The position numbers and the translations under genes were made by a program. The notes under the pieces were generated by a model that searched no databases, was not told the DNA's origin, and was given only the letters and a program-made list of their open reading frames with translations. Source: Chrysochromulina parva (Eukaryota > Haptophyta > Prymnesiales > Chrysochromulinaceae). Taken from it: DNA of 17,096 nucleotides. The number at the start of each line of letters is the position of its first letter. Within the stretch, counting starts at the first letter, position 1. This document shows positions 2 through 14,247 of this stretch, piece by piece. The stretch lies in the NCBI GenBank assembly GCA_002887195.1, contig PJAB01001120.1:1-17096 (forward strand). Direction: 5' to 3'.

Positions 2-1642
2 CACTGGATCAAAGGCAGCACCGCCTTCCGCATCGTCGACCCGGCGCGCTTTGCCAGCGACCTGCTGCCGCGCTACTTCAAGCACAACAAGCTCGGCTCG
101 TTCACGCAGCAAATGCACACGTACGCCTTTGTGCGGCGCTCCTATTCTGAGCCGGATTATCCTGACGCGATGGTCTTCTCGCATGAGCACTTCCGCCCCG
201 ACGCGCCAGAAGAGCTGCACAAAATCCGGCGTGGGCCAGCCGGTGGCCGTGTCGAGGACCTCGTCGAAGAGCTCACAGTCGTCCATACGAGCTACGCGCC
301 ACAGCCGCACAACTCGCCGGTGGCGGCGGCGGCACAGCCGCCGCAGCCGCCACAGCCGCTGCGAGCGCCACCGCCACTAGCCAGGCTGCCAATGCCGTCT
401 GTGCCGCACGAGGCGGGGGTACAGCTGCCGCCGACGAACGCATCGTCGGATCGCGGTCCCGTCGCCTTGCTGGCCCCTGCCAACGACTGCCAGATGGCAG
501 CATGCAGCCACGCCCCGGCGGGCAGGAGCTCTACTGCTGCCGCCGAAGGCGGCGGCTTCGTGGTGCCGATGGAATTGCTCGAGGAGCTGCTCCGGCAGTC
601 GGAAGAGGCTATCGGGCGGATGGAGCAAAGCTTCCGACATCGCGCCCTCGCGATGGATCATACACTCGTCGCGCTCTCCCAGGCGGTCGCGCATCGGCAC
701 CCGGCGCTGCATGCGGCTGTGCAGGAGATCCTGAACGCGAGGCCAGCACCGGCCGTGCCCGCTCCGCGCGCCGCGCAGGACTACGAGAACGACATGGAGG
801 ACGAGGACGACATGGACTGCAAGGACGACGATATGGGGGCGCACGACAAGCACAGCGACGGCGAGGAGAACGATTGCACCTACGCCATCGGCGGCGCTGC
901 GCAAGGAAGTCAACCGGGTGGTGCTGCGGCCGGTGCCTCTGCCCGCGGCAGCTCCGCCTTCGGCTGCGGCTCCGGACGGCCCACGCTCGATCACCTGACC
1001 GCGGCCGTGAGCTTGACGGACGCCGGCTTGCTGCCCGACGAGGCGGTGGCGAAGATCGATCTGAAGCGCAAGCGCGATACGTCGCCCGAAGGCAGCCGCG
1101 AGGGCGAAGAGCGCGATTCCGAGCCCTCAGAGCGCTCGTCGTACGATAACAACGACCACAGCTCTATCGAGGGGCGCGACGGCTCAGACCGCGAGCGGAC
1201 GGGGGCGGACAGCGGCTCCGAGGACGATCGCCGGAAGCAATGCCGAGGCGAATCGGACGAGCGCTCCGACTCAGCAGGCCGCTCGTCGCATAAGTCGGGC
1301 AGCGACAAGTCGGGCAGCGACAAGTCGGGCAGCGACAAGTCGGGCAGCGACAAGTCGGGCAGCGACAATTCTGGCGCTTCGGGCGGCTCGCAGCCGTCGA
1401 ATGCGAGCGGCAACGGTTCGCACCACTCGGATCAATCAGGCTCCAACGCGGGCTCGAATGCCGACTCCAATGCGGGCTCGGGTTCCGCGAGCGACGTATC
1501 GCGCGCCTCTGCGGTGGCCGGGAGCGTCGGCTCCGCTGGTGCCAACTCGTCGGACTCGAACAACCTCTCTTCGTCCTCCGCCTTGCCGCAGAGCGAGCCG
1601 AGTACCGTGGGCAGTGGCTCGACGAGCGGCTCCAGTCCGTGA
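2..1642 (+). CDS. Heat-shock-factor-like transcription factor, 5' end missing
   Basis: This is the C-terminal 546 residues of a protein whose start lies left of the window; the frame is open from base 2 to a TGA at 1640-1642. Residues 1 to about 75 match the HSF-type winged-helix DNA-binding domain: a W-x3-T-x-F-x-I strand, then LLPRYFKHNKLGSFTQQMHTYAF, matching the family pattern LLPxYFKHxNxxSFxRQLNxYGF, then a wing resembling FxHExFxxxxxxxLxxIRR. A helix with regular hydrophobic spacing follows (about 153-205, starting MELLEELL), which may oligomerise like HSF HR-A/B. Next come an acidic run rich in E/D, a KRKR nuclear localisation candidate near residue 356, and a long Ser/Gly/Asp-rich tail. 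Odd points: the usually invariant Arg of the recognition helix is Gln here, and the tail carries five perfect KSGSD repeats. The HSF fold is clear; DNA binding to standard heat-shock elements is not. Confidence 0.85.
   Translation, partial: HWIKGSTAFRIVDPARFASDLLPRYFKHNKLGSFTQQMHTYAFVRRSYSEPDYPDAMVFSHEHFRPDAPEELHKIRRGPAGGRVEDLVEELTVVHTSYAPQPHNSPVAAAAQPPQPPQPLRAPPPLARLPMPSVPHEAGVQLPPTNASSDRGPVALLAPANDCQMAACSHAPAGRSSTAAAEGGGFVVPMELLEELLRQSEEAIGRMEQSFRHRALAMDHTLVALSQAVAHRHPALHAAVQEILNARPAPAVPAPRAAQDYENDMEDEDDMDCKDDDMGAHDKHSDGEENDCTYAIGGAAQGSQPGGAAAGASARGSSAFGCGSGRPTLDHLTAAVSLTDAGLLPDEAVAKIDLKRKRDTSPEGSREGEERDSEPSERSSYDNNDHSSIEGRDGSDRERTGADSGSEDDRRKQCRGESDERSDSAGRSSHKSGSDKSGSDKSGSDKSGSDKSGSDNSGASGGSQPSNASGNGSHHSDQSGSNAGSNADSNAGSGSASDVSRASAVAGSVGSAGANSSDSNNLSSSSALPQSEPSTVGSGSTSGSSP
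1292..1366 (+). repeat. Five perfect 15-bp tandem repeats encoding KSGSD
   Basis: The unit AAGTCGGGCAGCGAC occurs five times without a mismatch and stays in frame with the HSF-like gene, giving (KSGSD)5 in its Ser-rich tail. A diverged sixth unit (AATTCTGGCGCTTCG) follows. Identity at every third codon position points to recent expansion by slippage or unequal exchange. Confidence 0.95.
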
Positions 1643-2828: not shown

Positions 2829-2932
2829 GTACACAGGCACCGACGCTGCCGAGCGGCTCAGGGAGAAAGTTAGGCAACATGTAATCGGCAGGCCGTCAGG
2901 CGTAAGCTGTGTTGTGAAGGTGCGAAATCACT
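2829..2932. promoter_or_regulatory. Head-to-head intergenic region, candidate bidirectional promoter
   Basis: Only 104 bp separate the ATG of TVP23 (minus) from the ATG of the unrecognised membrane protein (plus). Both 5' UTRs and both promoters must fit here unless upstream exons exist. I see no TATA box. Shared control of the pair is an inference from geometry. Confidence 0.5.
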
Positions 2933-3759
2933 ATGAATATCGCCCGCGTCGCGATCCGATCCGTGAAACAAGGGGGATGGATAAGTAAGCGCGGTGCTCG
3001 CCTTTGGCGGACTCCGATGGTTTCCTTCAATCGTGTCGTGAATGCGCTGTCGCTGCTCGCCGTCGCCGCAGGAGCCGCCTCGCTCGAATCACCGACCAGC
3101 CCTTCGACAACTCGTCCGTCGTCGCTGGTCGCCACGCGCAGGCAATATTTGCCAGCGGGCCACGCGGAGTACGAATTCGGGCCTCGCCAAGAAAAACTCT
3201 TCAATACCACGATGGTCGCGATGCAACAGGTCGCCATCGGCTTCTATGTGCACGCGTCCGTCAAGGCGCTTGAGACCATCCTCTACGTGTGTGCCGAGCG
3301 CGAGTGGGCCAAGCTTGCTGCTCTAGGCGGTCTCGTCAATGATGTACTGTATGGAGTCTTCACTTACAACGCGGCCGCGCACTTTGGCGCAATAACGGCG
3401 ACAAAAGGCAATGACTAACCCTTACCCTAATCCTAACCCTAATCCTAACCCTAGACTAACCCCGACCCTAATCCTAACCCTAATCCTAACCCTACCCACC
3501 CTAATAACTCACTCCGCTCAAACCTGGAATGACCTAACCCCAACCAGGCAATGACATCTCGAGACTCACATCGGCGCTGCAAGAAATGACGCTCTTCTGG
3601 AAGAGAATGCGCAACCCGCTTTTCGTCAAGAGCGCGATCATGCTGCTGCAACTGATTTGGAAGTACTTCCGGCCCTTCATCCAATCGAAAGCAGCGTCGT
3701 TGCAAGCAGCGATTTTGCCAGCAGTCAGGCTCTTCACTGGCGCTGCAAGTGGCGATTAG
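2933..3759 (+). CDS. Unrecognised multi-helix membrane protein, two exons
   Basis: I do not recognise a family. Exon 1 (2933-3407) begins at an ATG and, read straight through, would stop at 3416-3418, in the first TAA of a telomere-like repeat. Splicing out 3408-3547 as a GC-AG intron keeps the same frame (codon G|GC = Gly) and continues for 70 more codons to a TAG at 3757-3759, giving 228 residues. The exon 2 peptide looks like real protein: aromatic and basic residues around a hydrophobic helix (NPLFVKSAIMLLQLIWKYF), with most third codon positions G or C. Hydrophobic segments lie near residues 31-50 (signal peptide or anchor), 93-117, 125-150 and 180-200. Between the first two is a Ser/Thr/Pro/Arg-rich linker. 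A secretory or organelle membrane location is plausible. A second Met at residue 29 is an alternative start. Function unknown. Confidence 0.68.
3408..3547 (+). other. Predicted 140-nt GC-AG intron built of telomere-like repeats
   Basis: The 5' junction reads AAAAG|GCAATGAC and the 3' junction CCAACCAG|GCAATGAC, so AGGCAATGAC occurs at both ends (3406-3415 and 3546-3555). The only standard-type placement within this ambiguity is GC-AG. A CTAAC branch-point-like motif lies at about 3534-3538, and several more occur in the repeat body. Removal joins two open frames in phase. Support is frame continuity and boundary motifs; there is no transcript evidence here. Confidence 0.7.
3416..3492. repeat. 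Degenerate interstitial telomere-like repeat (CCCTAA type)
   Basis: The tract is hexamers in the C-rich orientation: exact TAACCC units alternating with TAATCC, plus TTACCC, CGACCC and one TAGAC interruption. The other strand therefore reads TTAGGG/GGATTA. The degenerate alternation suggests an old tract rather than a living chromosome end, and genes lie on both sides. Confidence 0.85.
3546..3555 (+). repeat. Second copy of direct repeat AGGCAATGAC spanning the intron 3' junction
   Basis: The identical 10-mer lies at 3406-3415 across the 5' junction. A third, degenerate copy (GGAATGACCTAACCC) starts at about 3527. The pattern resembles a target-site duplication or a tandem duplication of the exon boundary. 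Confidence 0.8.
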
Positions 3760-5384: not shown

Positions 5385-7719
5385 ATGACGACACCTGCAG
5401 CCGCTGCAATACCACCGCGGGAATGCACGTCGCCGTTCTCGCAGCTGCAGCCGCCCCTCTCTGCTGCGCTCATCGAGACGCTTTCGAAACATGGCTTCAC
5501 TCATGCCACGCCCGTGCAGGAGGCAACTATCCCACGACTGCTCAGGCACCAAGATGTCGTTGTGCAAGCAGCGACCGGCTCGGGAAAGACGCTCGCCTTT
5601 CTGCTGCCGCTCTTCGAGGTGCTGGGACGCCTTGATGAGCCGCTCAAGAAGCACGATGTTGGGGCTATCGTGGTCGAACCCACACGCGAGCTGGCGCAGC
5701 AAGTGTACTCGGTCGCACAAAAGATTGGCGCGGGCGGCGCTCCAACCCTGCGGCTCTCGCTTGTGATCGGGGGCACGGACATTCAGCAGGCAATGACCCA
5801 GTACCGCACCGATGGTGGCAACGTGATTATTGGCACCCCCGGCCGCCTGGACGACGTGATGGAGCGTATGCCCGAGATGCGACTCAAGACGCTTGAGTTG
5901 CTCGTGCTTGATGAGGCCGATCGATTGCTCGATATGGGGTTTGAGGCGACGCTCAACGCCATCCTCGGTCGGCTGCCCAAACAGCGTCGCACCGGGCTGT
6001 TCTCGGCCACGCAGACCTCCGAGGTCCTGAATCTCGTCAGGGCGGGGCTACGCAACCCAGTCAAGGTAGAGGTCAAGGTCCGTGCTCTGCCGCCGCCCGC
6101 AGCGCCGCTGCCCACAGCAGCGCCGCCGCCGCCGCTTGCAGCGCCGCCGCTTGTCCGCGATGCGAAGACAAAGAAGAAGGAGAAAGAACGGAACCAAAAG
6201 GTGAAGGCGGACGACGGTACGCCTCATGCCGCCGATGCCGCCGATGCCGCCGATGCCGCCGACGCCGCCGCTGCCCAGAACACCGCGGCCGCCTCGCCAG
6301 CCGCACCTTTGTTAGGGCGCGTGCAGGCGACGCCCGCGACGCTGACGAACCACTACATGATTGTGGATGGCGAAGCGCGGCTGGCGCAGCTGGTCGCCTT
6401 CCTCTGCGACGAGCTCGCTGCCGGGCGAAAGCTCATGGTCTACTTTTTGACATGCGCCTGTGTGGACTACTATGCGAGTGCGCTCACACGGCTACCGGTA
6501 ATGCGCGGCCTCCCTGTGCGCGGCCTGCACGGCAAGATGGCGCCGAGCTCACGGACCAAGGCGTACGAATGGTTCGTGGGGTCCACCACCGGCGGCGCCG
6601 CGCTCCTATGCACCGACGTGGCGGCGCGAGGCCTCGATATTCCAGACGTTGATTGGATTGTGCAATTCGACGCACCGCAGGACCCGAATGCCTTTGTGCA
6701 TCGCGTGGGCCGTACGGCGCGCATGGGCCGTGCGGGGCGCGCGCTCCTCTTCCTGCGCTCTACGGAGGATGCGTACGTGCGCTTCCTGCAGCTGCGTAAG
6801 GTGCCACTCACACCCATTGAGCCAGCCCACGACCTCGTGTCGCTGCGCCCCGAACTCACGGAGCTTCTGGTGGCCGATCGAGCTCTCGTGGAGGGTGCCG
6901 CCCGTGCCTTCGTCTCGTACGTGCGCGCGTACAAGGAGCATCAGTGCAAGTTCATCTTTCAGCTCGAGAAGCTGGATCTCGGCGATCTCGCGCGCACGCT
7001 CGCGGTGCTGCGCTTGCCTAAGCTCAAAGAGATCCAGCAGGCCAAGCGCAGGAAGGGCGCTGCTGGCTGGGTCGACTGGACGCCACTCGTGCAGGTGGAC
7101 CTGGACTCGATTGCACCCGAGTGCATGCCCCATCGGCCTGGATGCGTCTGGTTGCGTCTGATTGCGTCTGAGTGCGCAGGTGGACCTGGACTTGATTGCA
7201 CCCAAGTGCATGCCTCTTGAGTCTGATTGCGTCGGGTTGCCCCCGATGGCGCAGGTGGACCTGGACTCGATCAAGTTCAAGGACCGGCAGCGCGAGAAGC
7301 AGCGCCAAACCAACAAGAAGATCAAGGCGGAGGCGGCCGCCGCGGAGGCTGAAGCGCAGGTGGCTGAAGGGGCGACCGCAGCCGCACCGGCTGCCGCCGC
7401 CCCCGCTTCCCGAGCAGGTCTGTCTCAGCAGGAGCGCGACCGCGAGCGGGCTCGGCAGGCGGCCGAGGAGGAGGAGGAGCTGGCTCGGGAGGCCGCGCTC
7501 ATGAAGAAGCTGAAGCGCGGCAAGATTACCCAAGCAGAGTTCGACAGGCTGATGGGCGAGGACGACGAGGAGGAGGAGGAGGAGGCCGACGAGGATGACG
7601 CCACGCCGCGAGGGGTTGGTGCTGGTGGCAGACCCCAAGCGGGCAATAAGCGTGGCCGCTGGAATGGCCGTGGCGATCGGAGCGGCGGAGGACGCGGGAA
7701 GAAGCGCTCCCGCTACTAG
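5385..7719 (+). CDS. DDX55: DEAD-box RNA helicase DDX55/Spb4, two exons
   Basis: Spb4/DDX55 is a nucleolar ATP-dependent RNA helicase required for 60S ribosomal subunit assembly. Taking ATG 5385 and removing an intron at 7095-7254 gives 724 residues. Motifs in order: Q-motif (PVQEATIP, about 43-50), ATGSGKT 63-69, PTREL 99-103, TPGR 141-144, DEAD 166-169, SAT 197-199, ARGLDIP 404-410, HRVGRTAR 429-436. The segment FVSYVRAYKEHQCKFIFQ and, after the splice, KFKDRQREKQRQ are specific to this subfamily, followed by the C-terminal LMKKLKRGKITQAEFDRL and an RGG/Lys-rich tail. An Ala/Pro/Lys-rich insert of about 80 residues (225-304) separates the two RecA lobes, with four 9-bp repeats encoding ADA. 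ATG 5277 is in frame and would add 36 residues, but family alignment favours 5385. Without splicing the frame stops at 7218-7220. Confidence 0.93.
6231..6266 (+). repeat. Four 9-bp tandem repeats in the DDX55 inter-lobe insert
   Basis: GCCGATGCC occurs three times, followed by GCCGACGCC. The repeats are in frame and encode Ala-Asp-Ala in the linker between the helicase lobes. Confidence 0.9.
7095..7254 (+). other. Predicted 160-nt intron made of two tandem GT...AG units
   Basis: Exon 1 ends CTCGTGCAG and exon 2 begins GTGGACCTGGACTCGATC. Removing 160 nt shifts the frame by one and joins the two open frames as Q|VDLDSIKFKD, the expected DDX55 sequence. Unit A (7095-7179, 85 nt) and unit B (7180-7254, 75 nt) each begin GTGGACCTGGACT and end GCGCAG, and they match at about 34 of their first 37 positions. 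The exon after the intron repeats the first 17 nt of unit A exactly. Unit A removed alone leaves unit B in frame with no stop (25 extra residues). Retention of both gives a stop at 7218. Confidence 0.85.
7141..7179 (+). repeat. 10-bp tandem repeats inside intron unit A
   Basis: The 3' half of unit A consists of GATGCGTCTG, GTTGCGTCTG, ATTGCGTCTG and a last partial copy AGTGCGCAG that forms the 3' splice site. Unit B has only degenerate traces of this array (TCTGATTGCG, then a GGGTTGC variant). Confidence 0.85.
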
Positions 7720-8365: not shown

Positions 8366-11300
8366 TCACCATGCAGGCAGCCCCTGGAGCTCCTGCTGTG
8401 CCGGCCGATTCTCGCGCCCAGCCTGCACCAGGGTGGGCGGGCGATTACGAACCTCCTGCAGCACGTTTGCGGTGATTGGCCGGTTGGCAGCCACGGCGAG
8501 CGCCGCCCGGCGCGGCGAGCGCCGGAGTCCTGGGGTAGCGGCAGCCGGTGCCACAGGCGCCGCGGCACCGAGTGGCACCGGCGCGTATAGGTGCAGAGCG
8601 CCAGGCGGCAGCGGTAGCATCCACTGGCGTTGCGCGGCGAGCTGTAGGAAGGCCGCGAGCACCGCCGAATGCGCCACCGTCGAGGCTGAGCCAACGATGA
8701 TCATCTTTCTCTTTGCACGAGTGAAGGCGACGTTGAGACGGCGGAAGTCCGCTAGAAGCGAGCCCGTGTCGCCCTGCCCGTTTGAGCGCACGAGCGAGAG
8801 CACCACGCACTCAAAATCGCGCCCCTGGCACTTGTCCACCGTCATCAGTTCCACAGCCGTCGCGGGTGACGAAGTCTCGGGCGCTGTCTCGGGCGCTGTC
8901 TCGGGCGCTGTCTCGGGCGCTGACGCGTGGGAGCCGTCGCCGCCAGATGCGCCCGATACAGCGTCCGAGACGCCGCCAGGTGCGCCCGATACAGCGCCCG
9001 TGACGCCGCCAGATGCGCCTCCGGCGAACGCCGCGGACAGTGCGGCGCGGATGCGCTCAAGTTGCGCCCGATAGGCCGAGATGACGCCGAGGTGCGCGGC
9101 CGGCACACCCGCTGCGAGAAGTGCATGCACGAGCAGCGCTACCAGCCGCGCCTCGCCTCCGTTGGACACGTTGCCGCGCGCGCCTTCCGAGCGCTCCTCC
9201 GCCGATGGCATGGCATCAGTGTCGAGGAAGACAACTCGTCGGTTGGTCGACAGGCACTCGTCGAGCCAGTCTGCGTGGCGAGTGGCCCCCAGCCAGGGCG
9301 CCAAGGAGTTCGAGGAACCGTCAGTCTCCACTGACACGTCGCCCAACACGGCGGCGAGCGCGTCGGATGTGGCGAGCGGCCGGTGAGGGTGCGCTGCGGC
9401 CACCCACTCACGCGCCTTGGCCCACGCCTGCGCATCCGTCGAGGGCGGCGGCAACCGATGCGGCAGTGGCAGCGAGAGCGAGGCGTTGGCCTGCGCCTCG
9501 CTGCCGCAGCGCAGCAGGCCGCCGTACACGAGCCTGTTCGAGACGTCCATAATCTCCGCGTTCATGCGGTACTGCGTCGTAAGTTGGCAAATGGCGCGAG
9601 GGTGCGCGGCGGCAAGTCGGCTGAAGAGGGCTGTGCCCATCCCGGCGCGCTCAGCCTCCGCCTCTGCCACGAGGGGCGGGAGCTGATATTGATCGCCCAC
9701 GAGGACGAAGCGGCGCGCCAGCCGGAGAGGGCCAAGGCATACCGGCTCGGTGATCTGACCCGCCTCGTCCACAATCGCCACGTCGAGCTGCCGCTTCCAG
9801 AGCAGGGCGTGCTGTGCGCCCATCGCGGTCGCTGCCACGACCGGCCGACGCGCCAGCTCGGCCTCTACCATTCCCTGGTCGGCGAGCGTCGAGTCATCGA
9901 GCAGGGCCGGCAGCGAGTGCGCGCGCACGGCTGGGTGCACCTTGCCCACGGGGCCGAGGCGCACGAATGCAACCCCTTCCTCGAGTAGCTTGAGGCACAG
10001 CGTGTCAACGGCCGAGTGCGTGTACGCTGTGAGCAACACCTGCTGCCCCGCCGCCACGAGAGCGCGTACTGCCTGCGCGATGAGGGTCGACTTGCCAGTA
10101 CCGGGCATACCGAGTATAAGACAGTAGTCCTCGCACGCCAGCACGCGACCGACCGCGCGTCGCTGCTGTGCGTTGAGTGGCGTGTTCGCGAGGCGCTCGC
10201 GTTCGGGCGCTGGCAGCGCCTGCAGCGCCGCCGCCTCTGAGCTGAAGCGCGGCGGCTGCATGTCCACCAGTAGCTCGAGTAGCCGGGAGGGCATCGCCGG
10301 CGGTGCGGCCTCGGCGGGCGCGGCCTCGGCGGCGCCTGCCGCAGTGGTGGCGGCAGCAACGACGGGGATCGACGCTGTGTCGGGCGCTCGTGGCGGCGCG
10401 AGTAGCCCAAGCACATTGCTCCGGCAGATGCTGAAGCCGCTCGCAACGTCCGCCTTGTCCAGGCGCAAAAGCCGTGGCGCGGGCGTGGTCGTGGGCGCGG
10501 GCGTGGTCGTGGGCGCGGGCGTGGTCGTGGGCGCGTGCGTGGTCGCCGCGGCAGCCGAGGGAACACCAGCGCGCTGGCCTGTCGTGGCGCCCAATGCAGC
10601 GCCTATGGCCTCGATGCCGAGATCGAGCAGATTGGCGTCCGTGATCAGTGCAAGCTCGGTGGTGCTCAAAGCCGTGACTGTGCCATTGCACAGGCCCCAC
10701 CGAGGTGCGCGGCCACCACCCTCGTCGGCCGCGACAGAGACCGTTACGTAATCGCCGATCGCCACTGGACCATCGCTCAGCGCAACGCCGGAGCTCACCT
10801 CGCGGCTCTTGGCGCCGAGGCTGGCGCCGACGCTGCCACTGCTGCATGCGCCTCCTGTGACGCTGCGACTGTTGCGTGCGCGTCGGAAGATGTGCACAAA
10901 GCGGTCCGTCGCACCACCAGCGACGGTGGGCACACGCTCCACGCGCACAAGCTCGAGCGATCCAAGCGCGCGGCCGGCGGCCTCGCGCTCGAAGGCACTG
11001 AGCTGAAGCATCTCGCGCGCGAGATGTGCTGAGCTGCGCTCTTCTAGGTCGATCAGTCGGAGCCAGTGCTGCGCGTACTCGAGGTGGTGCGCGCGCAGGT
11101 GGGACGTATGCGCGGTGAAGACGTCGCGTGCGCCAAAGGAGGAGGCGTTGCCGTGCTCGAGCGCCGCGTGCACGGTAGCACACGGCGCCGCCATTGGGCA
11201 GCGGAGGCATACGTGGGGATCACCCAATGGCGGAGGCATGCGCCCGTCGGCTAGGGCGTGCGGCGCGGCGGCACCCACGAGGATGTTGCGCTGCACGAGA

Positions 11301-13708
11301 AGCGAGGCGAGCAGCCCCGACTCGGCAGGCACGACCCACATACTCTGGTGCGTCTGCTTAGACGTCTGCTTGGACAGCTGTGGGTACCAGAGCAGCCCGC
11401 TGGGCACGCGCGTCTCGTACAAGTCGGAGACTAGCAGTGTGTACACGAGCAGCTGCGCGTTGTGATCGGCCGTGTTGTAGGCCGTGCGCTGGCCTGTCTT
11501 GAGCTCGAGTGGCATGGGCAGCTCGATGCGCCCGCCGCGCCCATCCAAAAGCGTCACGGCCACGATCGCGTCCACCGTCCCCTTCAGCCCGTACGTTGTC
11601 GAGATCAGCGACTCTTCGGCTCCGATCACACCAGAGAGGCGCAGCTCGCCTGCCCCCAAGCCGCAGGCTCGGAAGGTGCGCGCCGTCAGGCTCGTGGCGT
11701 CACCCGGTGCCATCTCGCATCGGAGTGGCTGCGCGCCGAGCGGTAGCATGGGGGCCGGTACGGCCGGACTCGGCGCGGCTGACACGTGGGCGGTAGGCGC
11801 CGGCGCAGCTGGCAGCACGCGCACCGCCGCGGGCGGCGGCAGGTAGTCATTCGCCCACTGGCATAGCGTAGGCAGCGATTCGTGAAGCTCACGACCCACA
11901 TCCCGCTCGTCGAGCTGGAGCGCGATCAGCTCTGGCAGGTGTGAACGCAACACCTCACGGACCGCACGCGGCCAGTCTGTGCGGATCGAAGCGGCAGCGG
12001 CGGTGGCGGCGGCATTCGGCGGGGCAGTGGGCGTCTGTTGACGAAACTCGGCATTCGTCTGTTGACGAAACTCCGCATTCGTCTGCCCCGTGGAAGCAGC
12101 GGCGCCAAGTTTCGTCAAGGCATCCGGGGCGTCCGGGGCGCCCCCCTCGCTCCGTGCGGCGGCCGCGGCTGCGGCGTCCGCCTGTTCACGCCAGTGCGCG
12201 AGGACACGCCCGAACAGCTCGTGCTTCATCGTGCCAAGCACCAGATTCTTGCCCAGGTCCGCTTCGCGGAACAGCTTGGAGAAGACGGTGCGGCGCGTGC
12301 ACGAGCATGCCTGCGCGAGCGACGTGCCGGTGACGAGTACCTCGGGGCGCAGCACGAGCCATGGGCCAGCCGAGCGCGTGAGCACGGTGCAGCGTGCGCC
12401 ACTGCTATCAGTGGTCAGTGCAAGCTCACCCACGAGATTGACCCGATCTGACGGGAGCACCGGGGTTAGTCGCCACTCGTCGTGTAGCTCGGCGTAGAGC
12501 ACGTCCGCGCGCGACCATCCCGTGATAAGCCGTTGGTCGACGCCCAGCAGGTCCGCGCCGAGCGAAGGCGGTAAACGCGACGTTGCGCCTGCGCCGTCGT
12601 GGGCGCCGTCGTCGCCCCCTGCCGCCAAGTCCGCAGATTGAGTCTCCGCGGCGGAGTGACGCCGGTCCACAAGAACCTCGATCCATCGCACGTCGCCGCC
12701 GGCAGTCTGCTTGAAGCCAGTGCGCAGCACGAGGCCGCTCGTAACAGGCGGCCGGTGCGTCGGCGGCGCCGGCATGCACTGACGGCGGCGCGGCAGCGGC
12801 ATGGCGAGGGTCGGCAGCGGCGTGGCGAGGGCTCTAGCGGCGAGGGGTCCTTGGGCCGCTAGAGCCATCGCAGACGGGCGCAGCCGAGTGCCCTCGAGCG
12901 TCTCCCGCCGTGGGTCCGGCTTCGGAGCACCCTGGACTGGCAACGTGTCGTCGGGCGCCGGCGCCGCCACTTCCCGCGGGGGCGCAGATCGTGGGACCGA
13001 TGCGAACGGAGCCACCGTGTCGGCTGCGTTTGCGAGCGACGGTGCCGGCGAGACATGCATGGGAGCGGGAGCGGGTTCGGGTGCTGGCGCTGGCGGGGCT
13101 GTGGGGGCAGGCGCAGGCGCAGCGGCCTGGGCGAGTGGCGCGGGGTGTCGTTCCGTGCTGGTACCACTGCTACCACCAGCACATCCCTCCGCCATGAGCG
13201 TCTCTACGAGCTCGGCGATGGGATCAGCTTCTGCTGCGCCCTCGACCGATCTGCTGCTTCCCGCCGCACTGCAACTACTGCCAGCGGCGCCGGCTACTCC
13301 CAAGCCAGCATCTCCGCGGACGCCGCCCCTGCGCTGTCGCTGGAAACCTTGGAAGGGCATGGCAGCCGGTGCCTGGGGCATCTGCAGCAGCACGGCGTCC
13401 GGCTCGGTGTGGCGCTGCTTCTGCTTCTCCTTGCCGCGCTGCATCAGGTCGAGCAGTCCAGCGACCTGCTTTGCGCTCGATCCGGGCCGCGGATCACGCC
13501 TCTGCACGGGCACAGACTTGGCAGCGCCGGGTCGCACCGCTGGCGGCTGCTGCCGTCTCTTTGAATCGTTGAAGGCCCACATGATCGTACCACGCTCCAA
13601 ATCCGCCTTGTCCTCCACCTTTTGCTCGCCGGAGCTGTCGACGGTTGCCGCGGCCTTTTCGAGCGGAGAGCCCTTGCGCTTGCCGGCCGTCGAGTTCGAG
13701 CGCAGCAT
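8366..13708 (-). CDS. DNA2: DNA2 nuclease-helicase, long form
   Basis: DNA2 joins a RecB-type nuclease to an SF1 helicase; it trims long Okazaki flaps and resects DNA ends. The frame runs 1,780 codons from an ATG at 13708 with no need for introns. Residues 1 to about 440 are low complexity with a KRK basic patch. The nuclease follows: CSCTRR (first Fe-S Cys, about 466), GTMKHELF, GLKGTVDAIV (catalytic Asp, about 708), MPLELKTG (Glu and Lys, about 732), QLLVYTLL, and CLRCPMAAPC (CxxCx5C, about 835), giving four cluster cysteines. Helicase motifs: GMPGTGKST (about 1200), DEAG (about 1315), GDQYQLPPL (about 1339), QYRMN (about 1380), TVDKCQGRDFE (about 1623), VAFTRAKRK (about 1662). All key residues are present. 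It is much longer than the human protein (about 1,060) because of a long N-terminus, inserts made of tandem repeats and an added C-terminal tail of about 100 residues. Confidence 0.94.
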   Translation of the reverse strand: MLRSNSTAGKRKGSPLEKAAATVDSSGEQKVEDKADLERGTIMWAFNDSKRRQQPPAVRPGAAKSVPVQRRDPRPGSSAKQVAGLLDLMQRGKEKQKQRHTEPDAVLLQMPQAPAAMPFQGFQRQRRGGVRGDAGLGVAGAAGSSCSAAGSSRSVEGAAEADPIAELVETLMAEGCAGGSSGTSTERHPAPLAQAAAPAPAPTAPPAPAPEPAPAPMHVSPAPSLANAADTVAPFASVPRSAPPREVAAPAPDDTLPVQGAPKPDPRRETLEGTRLRPSAMALAAQGPLAARALATPLPTLAMPLPRRRQCMPAPPTHRPPVTSGLVLRTGFKQTAGGDVRWIEVLVDRRHSAAETQSADLAAGGDDGAHDGAGATSRLPPSLGADLLGVDQRLITGWSRADVLYAELHDEWRLTPVLPSDRVNLVGELALTTDSSGARCTVLTRSAGPWLVLRPEVLVTGTSLAQACSCTRRTVFSKLFREADLGKNLVLGTMKHELFGRVLAHWREQADAAAAAAARSEGGAPDAPDALTKLGAAASTGQTNAEFRQQTNAEFRQQTPTAPPNAAATAAAASIRTDWPRAVREVLRSHLPELIALQLDERDVGRELHESLPTLCQWANDYLPPPAAVRVLPAAPAPTAHVSAAPSPAVPAPMLPLGAQPLRCEMAPGDATSLTARTFRACGLGAGELRLSGVIGAEESLISTTYGLKGTVDAIVAVTLLDGRGGRIELPMPLELKTGQRTAYNTADHNAQLLVYTLLVSDLYETRVPSGLLWYPQLSKQTSKQTHQSMWVVPAESGLLASLLVQRNILVGAAAPHALADGRMPPPLGDPHVCLRCPMAAPCATVHAALEHGNASSFGARDVFTAHTSHLRAHHLEYAQHWLRLIDLEERSSAHLAREMLQLSAFEREAAGRALGSLELVRVERVPTVAGGATDRFVHIFRRARNSRSVTGGACSSGSVGASLGAKSREVSSGVALSDGPVAIGDYVTVSVAADEGGGRAPRWGLCNGTVTALSTTELALITDANLLDLGIEAIGAALGATTGQRAGVPSAAAATTHAPTTTPAPTTTPAPTTTPAPRLLRLDKADVASGFSICRSNVLGLLAPPRAPDTASIPVVAAATTAAGAAEAAPAEAAPPAMPSRLLELLVDMQPPRFSSEAAALQALPAPERERLANTPLNAQQRRAVGRVLACEDYCLILGMPGTGKSTLIAQAVRALVAAGQQVLLTAYTHSAVDTLCLKLLEEGVAFVRLGPVGKVHPAVRAHSLPALLDDSTLADQGMVEAELARRPVVAATAMGAQHALLWKRQLDVAIVDEAGQITEPVCLGPLRLARRFVLVGDQYQLPPLVAEAEAERAGMGTALFSRLAAAHPRAICQLTTQYRMNAEIMDVSNRLVYGGLLRCGSEAQANASLSLPLPHRLPPPSTDAQAWAKAREWVAAAHPHRPLATSDALAAVLGDVSVETDGSSNSLAPWLGATRHADWLDECLSTNRRVVFLDTDAMPSAEERSEGARGNVSNGGEARLVALLVHALLAAGVPAAHLGVISAYRAQLERIRAALSAAFAGGASGGVTGAVSGAPGGVSDAVSGASGGDGSHASAPETAPETAPETAPETSSPATAVELMTVDKCQGRDFECVVLSLVRSNGQGDTGSLLADFRRLNVAFTRAKRKMIIVGSASTVAHSAVLAAFLQLAAQRQWMLPLPPGALHLYAPVPLGAAAPVAPAAATPGLRRSPRRAALAVAANRPITANVLQEVRNRPPTLVQAGRENRPAQQELQGLPAW
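8877..8924 (-). repeat. Four 12-bp repeats encoding APET within DNA2 helicase lobe 2
   Basis: On the plus strand TCGGGCGCTGTC occurs three times and then TCGGGCGCTGAC. On the coding strand this encodes (APET)n just before helicase motif V. Confidence 0.92.
8938..9018 (-). repeat. 33-bp tandem repeats encoding an 11-residue Gly/Ala/Ser unit in DNA2
   Basis: About two and a half copies encode GASGGVTGAVS, GAPGGVSDAVS and GASGGDGSHAS. They lie next to the APET repeats; together they form an insert of about 45 residues inside the second RecA lobe. Confidence 0.85.
10485..10544 (-). repeat. 18-bp tandem repeats encoding TTTPAP in DNA2
   Basis: The plus-strand unit GTGGTCGTGGGCGCGGGC occurs at 10485-10502 and 10503-10520, then with one change at 10521-10538, followed by a partial copy. 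It encodes a Thr/Pro/Ala linker between the nuclease and helicase parts. Confidence 0.92.
12032..12085 (-). repeat. 24-bp tandem repeat encoding QTNAEFRQ in DNA2 nuclease region
   Basis: Two copies (12032-12055 and 12056-12079) differ by one base, and a partial third follows. The repeat lies in a low-complexity insert between the first Fe-S cysteine region and the catalytic Asp. Confidence 0.9.
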
Positions 13709-14247
13709 ATCGATGACGAGGGCGGCAAAGCTAGGCGAGAAAACACGAAGGTGTGAATTGGTTGCGGAATGCCGCTTGAGGTCTCGAGCGAGTGGCAGTC
13801 GGCGAGTGGTGGCAACCTTACGCCGGTCCGGTGTCTTGGGTGTCGAATTATACCCATTGGCTGTGAATTGTTCCCAGACGGGTTGCTTTTTCGCCAGTAT
13901 CGCGTGTGCGTGGCTGCGTGCCCGTGACGGCGCACTTTTTGACTAGGGGGACCTTCCTACTAGTACTCAGGTAATAACCTCATCGGCTTTGAACACTGTG
14001 CCGTGTGCGCCCGTAGGTGTCCCGGGTGTGTCCCTCCCGGCTCCCCCCGGAACCCCCCCCGGTGTCTGTTTACCGGTAGAGGGTCCAGCAAGAGAGAAGA
14101 GTGGTCATATCAGATCTGTCTTCATCTGCTTCATCTCCGCCCTGGCGCCTGGGTCGATGCGCCTCTGGGTGTGGGGTTCCAAGGTTTTTAGAGCTCCGGT
14201 AAAAACAGTGTACCCAAGCGCCATCTTCACCTCGAAGCTCTGCAAAC
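13709..14247. other. Region upstream of DNA2, presumed promoter and 5' UTR
   Basis: These 539 bp lie between the DNA2 start (minus) and the 3' end of the zinc-finger gene (minus). They should hold the DNA2 promoter and the terminator of the zinc-finger gene. I see a C-rich stretch at about 14020-14062 but no TATA box, RNA gene or convincing open frame. Confidence 0.5.

What the first reader, a model, noticed from the sequence alone, without database searches (positions are those of the whole stretch)
3406..3555. An intron made of telomere-like repeats, bounded by a 10-bp direct repeat
Seen: the open frame from 2933 runs into a CCCTAA-type tract and stops in its first TAA, but removing 3408-3547 joins it in phase to 70 further protein-like codons. 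AGGCAATGAC spans both junctions. Inference: a telomere-repeat tract was inserted (for example during break repair) with duplication of its target, and is tolerated because it is spliced. The C-rich strand supplies repeated CTAAC, which resembles a branch point, and pyrimidines, so such tracts may be pre-adapted as introns in this orientation. GC-AG ends are unusual in most eukaryotes.
Basis: partly seen in the sequence, partly recalled or inferred. Interest (0 to 1): 0.88.

Follow-up and report, generated by a model that had tools for sequence, protein, structure and literature searches.

The report
Introns built from telomere-like repeats
In a planktonic alga that is likely a relative of Chrysochromulina, runs of chromosome-end-like repeat DNA sit inside genes between duplicated scraps of the gene itself and are predicted to be spliced out, which points to a likely route by which new introns are born.

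Summary
A CCCTAA-type tract interrupts a frame at 3416-3545, AGGCAATGAC lies on both sides, and removing 3408-3547 (GC...AG) joins two open frames. Relatives conserve the exon-2 peptide (79-98% identity), while the tract differs from one close relative by an indel that is not a multiple of three. The window is not unique. In the same 45-Mb assembly, 17 of 40 sampled tract-bearing sources have a flanking direct repeat of 10-37 bp (median 28). All 20 of 43 tract rows inside predicted genes carry CCCTAA on the coding strand. The repeats are enriched for AGG[TC] (9 of 15, expected 2.9). In 7 of 10 proteins scanned, a Pfam domain runs across the junction once the tract is removed. Other introns of this genome are built alike from 10-12-bp arrays (CTGATTGCC type), so telomere-like DNA is one filler of a wider process. 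Most likely staggered-break repair duplicated the target and added array DNA; the duplicated AG|GY then would serve as splice sites and CTAAC/CTGAT units as branch sites. No RNA was available, so splicing is inferred. Staggered-break intron gain (Daphnia) and telomere insertion at breaks (mammals) are each known; my ten searches found no report of the combination.

The parts
2933..3407 (+). predicted exon 1 (158 codons plus 1 base)
   Evidence: open frame to the TAA at 3418; relatives P0002-P0009 share it and end at KGND, KGNDPLTLTRIPP or KGNDPLTPTRIPP
3406..3415 (+). direct-repeat copy 1, AGGCAATGAC; AAG|GC would be the donor
   Evidence: sequence; 25 of 20,000 random pairs as good
3408..3547 (+). 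predicted 140-nt intron, GC...AG; seven CTAAC
   Evidence: removal restores the frame; CTAAC starts at intron positions 8, 26, 38, 49, 67, 79, 127
3416..3545 (+). inserted segment, 130 bp, CCCTAA-type units to about 3494, then a less regular stretch ending CCTAACCCCAACC
3546..3555 (+). direct-repeat copy 2, AGGCAATGAC; CAG| would be the acceptor
3548..3759 (+). predicted exon 2 with stop TAG
   Evidence: peptide conserved in P0010-P0016 with conservative changes and in-frame indels
7095..7254 (+). second intron-like insertion in the window, in an SPB4-type DEAD-box helicase gene: three copies of GCAGGTGGACCTGGACT[CT]GAT spaced 85 and 75 bp; GT...AG, non-telomeric filler with TGCGTCTGATTGCG units
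   Evidence: removal of 160 bp joins ...WTPLVQ to VDLDSIKFKDRQREK in frame

Best explanation
The 140-bp tract at 3408-3547 is predicted to be a spliceosomal intron that likely arose when telomere-like repeat DNA was inserted into a coding exon with duplication of the target AGGCAATGAC, whose two copies would now supply both splice sites. Shown here: the tract, the repeated 10-mer, the restored frame, the conserved peptide on both sides, and the same anatomy at other loci of this genome. Inferred: a staggered break (or two offset nicks) with long overhangs was filled in, giving the duplication, and repeat DNA from telomerase action or captured telomere DNA was joined in between. Inferred: when the duplication carries AG|GY and the C-rich strand is the coding strand, the spliceosome removes the insert without changing the mRNA, with CTAAC units as candidate branch sites; other insertions in coding sequence are selected out. 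The same process with 10-12-bp CTGATTGC-type arrays appears to have made further introns of this alga.
For: (1) Flanking direct repeats. Of 41 tract rows with usable flanks, 17 score 12 or more against 0.85% of 1,640 mismatched flank pairs. The 17 loci kept, the window among them, have repeats of 10-37 bp, median 28, with 0 to 5 mismatches (one, L044, with a gap). (2) Strand. All 14 tracts whose upstream flank scores above 5 as a stop-free coding frame have CCCTAA on the coding strand. All 20 of 43 tract rows inside predicted genes are sense, 0 antisense; 15 of the 20 fall in a predicted intron. (3) Splice signals. 9 of 15 coding duplications hold AGG[TC] in both copies (expected 2.86, P 0.0005) and 13 of 15 hold AGG (expected 4.82). 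(4) Protein continuity. After removal, Pfam domains run across the junction by at least 20 residues in 7 of 10 proteins scanned (of 12 built): PfkB, protein kinase, TTL, GH79, aspartyl protease, RelA/SpoT, IFT140/IFT172. (5) Window gene. Exon 2 is conserved, down to 79%. Relative P0010 reads an open frame through its tract into exon 2, while the same frame in the window stops, so the tracts differ by a non-3n indel. (6) Derived state at one site. The kinase with an identical 30-bp duplication (L046) is uninterrupted there in Chrysochromulina tobinii P0017 and in P0019, P0020, P0022, P0024, P0025 and P0026 (8 of 17 hits looked at, P0018 starts at that point). (7) Insertions not usable as introns exist too: L063 (34 bp, over the stop codon of the upstream frame) and L055 (24 bp, outside predicted genes, with the duplication's GGTTA running into GGGTTAGG and then CCTAACCC head to head), as expected if insertion comes first and splicing is a filter.
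Against: No transcript was seen. Exon 2's codon score is weak and no better than that of one antisense frame (0.071 vs 0.070), and my gene finder did not call this gene. 23 of 40 sources show no flanking repeat by the measure (one of them, L070, has an 11-bp in-register repeat); in L060 the splice sites would come from the tract itself. In one search two downstream flanks (L036; the second row of L072, 11.6 against 10.7) score best on the antisense strand, and the gene finder may favour sense tracts because it can bridge them. At the window site no relative without the tract was found, so the insertion is not dated there. P0017 is an annotated model and could be a spliced product. The nearest CTAAC copies lie 10 and 58 nt from the acceptor, not at a typical distance (recalled). 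The L046 insert is open in frame and could be translated. Telomerase is supported by one head-to-head case only, and I know of no way for it to make the 10-12-bp arrays.
Confidence: 0.68

Rival explanations
1. Introner-like mobile element: the arrays are remnants of a transposon or retroposon family that inserts with long target duplications, with telomere-like and CTGATTGC-type tails as variants of one mechanism.
For: Telomeric and non-telomeric arrays share architecture and an overlapping duplication range. In several non-telomeric cases the duplication ends at CAG, or within one base of it, and the insert begins GTGAGT or similar (L053, L055, L070, L071, L072), as for introners that carry the 5' splice site (PMC9860276, passages). 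CTGATTGCCN arrays match at 354 overlapping places.
Against: By eye, no shared non-repeat body stands out among the inserts printed. PMC9860276 speaks of 3-9 bp duplications for introner families known before, against 10-37 bp here. Terminal inverted repeats and an encoded enzyme were not searched for.
Confidence: 0.2
2. Tandem genomic duplication of an AGGT-bearing exon piece made the intron, and simple repeats expanded later inside the duplicated segment by slippage.
For: Nested copies of exon piece plus array occur in the window at 7091-7275 and in L078. Homogeneous variant runs such as CCCGAA in L065 point to internal expansion. AGGT duplication is a recognised route (PMC3443670, passages).
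Against: The same two unit classes (CCCTAA; CTGATTGC type) recur at unrelated loci, which independent slippage does not predict. L046 has 66 bp of near-pure hexamers with an identical 30-bp duplication, leaving little time for expansion.
Confidence: 0.15
3. The tract at the window site is not spliced: the protein ends at KGND and the tract is 3' untranslated sequence.
For: All eight exon-1 relatives found end at KGND or nine residues on, and the codon score of exon 2 is weak.
Against: Those records end where an unspliced open frame would end. The exon-2 peptide is conserved with conservative changes and in-frame indels, and the same anatomy elsewhere sits inside conserved domains.
Confidence: 0.12
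4. Assembly artefact that joined telomeric reads into genes.
For: The source is a fragmented assembly of 2,199 contigs without a name.
Against: P0010 reads through a near-identical tract into exon 2 and stands for 5 member sequences on 13 contigs from three sources. In 13 of the 17 loci the two copies of the duplication are not identical: 12 by substitutions, L044 by a gap and substitutions.
Confidence: 0.03

Closest known systems
Intron gain at staggered double-strand breaks in Daphnia pulex (PMC4202315, passages)
   Same: Insert flanked by a direct repeat of the exon end; repeated bouts at one site; explained by staggered-break repair.
   Different: There the exon-intron repeats are 4-12 bp and the main text does not contain 'telomer' or 'tandem'; here repeats are 10-37 bp and the filler is a tandem array.
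Interstitial telomeric sequences inserted at breaks in mammals (PMC2246262, passages)
   Same: Telomere repeats inserted at break sites, sometimes with target duplication (6 of 130 rodent and 4 of 25 primate loci).
   Different: Duplication is a minority outcome there and no intron creation appears in the passages seen; here 17 of 40 sampled sources have it and the genic tracts are predicted to be introns.
Introners, including those of Chrysochromulina sp. (PMC9860276, passages)
   Same: Many similar introns, splice sites co-opted from target duplications; a Chrysochromulina family carries the 5' splice site and takes the 3' one from the target.
   Different: Duplications of 3-9 bp in earlier families (4 bp for that Chrysochromulina family) and shared element sequence; no 'telomer', 'tandem repeat' or 'simple repeat' in the main text.
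Tandem genomic duplication of AGGT (PMC3443670, passages)
   Same: AGGT in the duplicated exon piece provides both splice sites.
   Different: No foreign repeat filler between the copies in the passages seen.

Membership tests
Spliceosomal intron | Removal from the mature transcript | not testable with these tools
   No RNA data held
Spliceosomal intron | GT/GC...AG ends with both exons in one frame | tested here: met
   GC...AG at 3408-3547; GT...AG at L034, L040, L046, L054, L058, L065, L071
Spliceosomal intron | Conserved protein on both sides | tested here: met
   Window exon 2; 7 of 10 other proteins with a domain across the junction
Break-repair intron gain (Daphnia type) | Direct repeat of the target at both ends | tested here: met
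   10 bp here; 17 of 40 sources
Break-repair intron gain (Daphnia type) | Empty site in relatives | tested here: inconclusive
   Supported at L046 by uninterrupted proteins, protein level only; no tract-free relative at the window site
Introner | Shared element sequence across many introns | tested here: inconclusive
   Units are shared but no longer body was seen by eye in the inserts printed; no all-against-all comparison was run
Introner | 3-9 bp target duplication (reported for some families; not a strict definition) | tested here: not met
   10-37 bp in 17 of 17 loci with a repeat
Introner | Terminal inverted repeats or a mobilising enzyme | not tested
   Not searched
Interstitial telomeric sequence | Tract unit equals the organism's telomere repeat | tested here: inconclusive
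   Contig C85 ends in TTAGGG repeats, and C939 and C1328 have long arrays starting within about 40 bp of an end; telomere identity was not proved

The most novel reading that the evidence does not exclude
This haptophyte lineage makes introns de novo by a single insertion route that duplicates 10-40 bp of exon and drops in a ready-made array of branch-site-like units, with telomere repeats as one source: telomere DNA is pre-adapted to become introns, and only in the CCCTAA orientation.
Probability: 0.45. Interest if true: 0.93.

Novelty: new variant of a known kind. Interest (0 to 1): 0.83.

Why it matters
Where new spliceosomal introns come from is a long-standing question, and many gains leave no readable origin. 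Here the origin can still be read: target duplication, repeat filler, orientation bias and AG|GY enrichment, with insertions that did not become introns as internal contrasts. It links telomere biology to gene structure and gives a predictive rule that strain comparisons and RNA reads can test at once. It also warns that gene callers without splice models cut such genes short: eight relatives in the protein database end in or at the tract.

Tried and rejected
The Rfam scan of the window found nothing. Pfam finds no family for the window protein, so its function is unknown. Degenerate tract patterns added five loci. Of the 19 rows with score 9 or more I dropped L057 (repeat inside the tract itself) and the second, minus-strand view of L055, leaving 17. 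The L044 repeat has a 3-base gap and was not fitted by an in-register intron, though the gene finder proposed a longer one. Of 12 spliced products built, L059 and L065 were not sent to Pfam; the domains of L044, L034 and L054 did not clearly cross the junction and are not counted. The gene finder gave 19 GC donors among 104 introns; such counts depend on a home-made model and are not used as a rate. The widely spaced short repeats L058:5192 and L045:5061 on the minus strand look like chance or coding repeats and were set aside. Ten literature searches (one search listed 20 of 53 papers and 15 of 17) gave no paper that, in its listing or in the passages I read, describes telomere-repeat introns with target duplications; the library holds open-licence papers only.

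Full report
What is in the window. The frame from 2933 runs to a TAA at 3416-3418 inside a CCCTAA-type tract. AGGCAATGAC stands at 3406-3415 and 3546-3555. Removing 3408-3547 gives one 228-aa frame. The tract is period 6 up to about 3494, followed by a less regular stretch and CCTAACCCCAACCAG. All five + strand CCCTAA of the window are in it. The duplicated 10-mer alone is unlikely by chance (25 of 20,000 random pairs), though a looser gapped score does not single it out.

Which organism. The window is contig C1120 of an unnamed 45-Mb assembly in 2,199 contigs. The best relative of a kinase from the same assembly is a Chrysochromulina tobinii protein, 79% identical over the whole query by BLASTP and 90% in the multiple alignment; C. 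tobinii is a prymnesiophyte haptophyte. The GC content of 0.55-0.71 along the window is compatible with the 63.4% reported for C. tobin (PMC4580454, passages). I therefore read the source as a haptophyte close to Chrysochromulina; this is inference, mainly from one protein.

Relatives of the window gene. Eight relatives of exon 1 were found; three end exactly at KGND and five at KGNDPLTLTRIPP or KGNDPLTPTRIPP, which is what an unspliced frame running into a CCCTAA tract would give. So the tract, or one like it, is at this place in all relatives seen, and it is old. A search with the exon-2 peptide found seven relatives. P0014 and P0015 are 79-81% identical with exchanges such as R/K, V/I and Q/E, and others differ by in-frame gaps. 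P0010 has an open frame from an ATG in the tract through to exon 2. The same frame in the window stops before it, so the two tracts differ by an indel that is not a multiple of three, while exon 2 stays intact. That fits a removed segment. Against it, the codon score of exon 2 is weak and my gene finder missed the gene.

Other telomere-like tracts. The 15-mer CCTAACCCTAACCCT occurs at 118 places, 60 and 58 by strand; the listing is cut and shows 30 contigs. I fetched all 30, four further contigs shown by a longer pattern and five found with degenerate patterns. Places beyond the cut that the longer pattern misses were not seen. With the window this makes 40 sources, 193,089 bases, and 43 tract rows. 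Local alignment of the two flanks of each tract gave a score of 12 or more for 17 of 41 rows, against 0.85% of 1,640 mismatched pairs, and 9 or more for 19 of 41, against 7.5%. From these 19 I dropped a duplicate view of L055 and a repeat internal to the tract of L057; 17 loci remain, with duplications of 10, 13, 23, 23, 24, 24, 27, 28, 28, 29, 30, 30, 30, 31, 33, 34 and 37 bp. Inserts are 22-135 bp. The other 23 sources show no such repeat; 18 of these 23 lie outside predicted genes, and one, L070, has an 11-bp in-register repeat.

Strand and splice signals. A codon model trained on long frames was applied to the flanks without reference to splicing. All 14 tracts with a stop-free upstream frame scoring above 5 (a threshold chosen after seeing the table) have CCCTAA on the coding strand. 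Downstream flanks above the same threshold are sense in 10 rows and antisense in 2, L036 and the second row of L072. In a home-made gene finder (65 genes, 104 introns), 20 of 43 tract rows lie inside genes, every one in sense, 15 of them in a predicted intron; one of the 20 is the contig-end array L056. The finder may favour sense tracts because it can bridge them as introns. Of 15 duplications at coding loci, 9 contain AGG[TC] in both copies (expected 2.86 from exon windows of equal length, P 0.0005), and 13 contain AGG (expected 4.82; none of 20,000 draws).

Protein continuity. Of 12 spliced products built, ten were scanned against Pfam. A domain match crosses the junction by at least 20 residues in seven: PfkB (junction 299 in 19-319), protein kinase (165 in 63-218), TTL (278 in 193-307), GH79 (118 in 7-212), aspartyl protease (300 in 62-409), RelA/SpoT (166 in 61-189) and IFT140/IFT172 (191 in 104-447). 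It does not clearly do so in three: the 2OG-Fe(II) oxygenase L044 (junction at the domain edge), the WD-repeat protein L034 and MatE L054. Two of the seven, GH79 (L060) and RelA/SpoT (L070), are not among the 17 loci with a duplication. The kinase insert at L046 is open in frame and could be translated; but the C. tobinii protein and six further database relatives (P0019, P0020, P0022, P0024, P0025, P0026) are uninterrupted there (8 of 17 hits looked at), so the insert is probably a gain in this lineage. P0017 is an annotated model and could be a spliced product. P0018, 99% identical over 52% of our query, begins at the ATG of the second copy, as expected of a frame cut by a tract.

The process is wider than telomere repeats. 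A search for in-register direct repeats that restore a frame found introns of the same build with other fillers. In the predicted introns, 16 of 104 have a junction-spanning repeat scoring 10 or more, against 0.32% of mismatched pairs: 8 of 14 with telomere motifs and 8 of 90 without. Tandem arrays occur in 66 of 104 introns (mean of 20 base shuffles 3.55); 52 of the 66 have period 6 or 10-12. CTRAY, a branch-site-like pentamer (recalled consensus), has a density of 14.8 per kb in introns in sense, 2.5 antisense and 2.3 in exons. CTAACCC is found 69 times in sense and once antisense, CTGATTG 65 and 4 times. Three units of CTGATTGCCN match at 354 overlapping places in the genome. Six such places were fetched; one of six (L079) has a clear 19-bp flanking repeat, and L078 shows an exon piece copied together with its array. 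In the window itself the SPB4-type helicase gene has two such steps at 7091-7275.

Mechanism. The anatomy (target duplication, foreign filler, insertions also over a stop codon and outside predicted genes) says that insertion comes first and splicing filters. Long duplications fit fill-in of a staggered break or of offset nicks. L055, outside predicted genes, runs from a duplication ending GGTTA into GGGTTAGG and then CCTAACCC, as if both ends had been extended with G-strand repeats; this is one case. The 10-12-bp arrays need another source, so I commit to break repair with captured or newly made array DNA and keep a mobile element as the main rival.

Relation to the known. Staggered-break intron gain is described in Daphnia with 4-12 bp exon-intron repeats (PMC4202315, passages). 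Telomere insertion at breaks is described in mammals, in a minority of cases with duplication (PMC2246262, passages). Earlier introner families have 3-9 bp duplications, and a Chrysochromulina family is among the newer ones (PMC9860276, passages). AGGT duplication is a recognised route (PMC3443670, passages). The words 'telomer', 'tandem repeat' and 'simple repeat' do not occur in the introner paper's main text, nor 'telomer' in the review of gain mechanisms or the Daphnia paper. Micromonas introners (PMC3879977, passages) and dinoflagellate introners (PMC7789003 and PMC11453091, passages) gave no such case in what I saw, and PMC11782384 (passages) reports direct repeats near splice sites, mean 11.4 bp, in a wide range of introns. 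My ten searches found no report of the combination.

Limits. No transcript, no empty-site DNA, an incomplete unnamed assembly, a home-made gene model, and tracts chosen by telomere pattern, so the 17 of 40 is not a genome-wide rate.

Noticed in passing
window 7091-7275: Helicase gene with three copies of an exon piece and TGATTGCG-type filler: a second intron of the same build in this window.
   Followed up: yes
L055:3009-3086: Insert outside predicted genes with head-to-head telomere-like repeats between 24-bp duplications, possibly G-strand extension at both ends of a break.
   Followed up: partly
L063 minus strand 2928-3056: 34-bp identical duplication across the stop codon of the upstream frame with a telomere-like tract between: an insertion that needs no splicing.
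   Followed up: partly
L078; L080; L072 minus strand 83-249 and 510-668: Nested introns in which an exon piece plus array seems to have been duplicated again, as if insertion recurs at the same place.
   Followed up: partly
L047, L051, L056: Shared sequence like GGTCAAAAGAGGAGAATGAGAGAAGAAATGAC next to telomere-like arrays, near contig ends in L051 and L056: possibly a subtelomeric element.
   Followed up: no
window 8366-13942, minus strand: 1858-aa open frame that looks like a large helicase (recalled motifs, not tested).
   Followed up: no
window 1292-1368: Five perfect 15-bp repeats coding KSGSD in a long open frame.
   Followed up: no
L065 minus strand 1458-1569; L071:1465-1547: Tracts with homogeneous runs of variant units (CCCGAA, CCCTTA), which suggests local amplification or copying from variant telomere repeats.
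   Followed up: no
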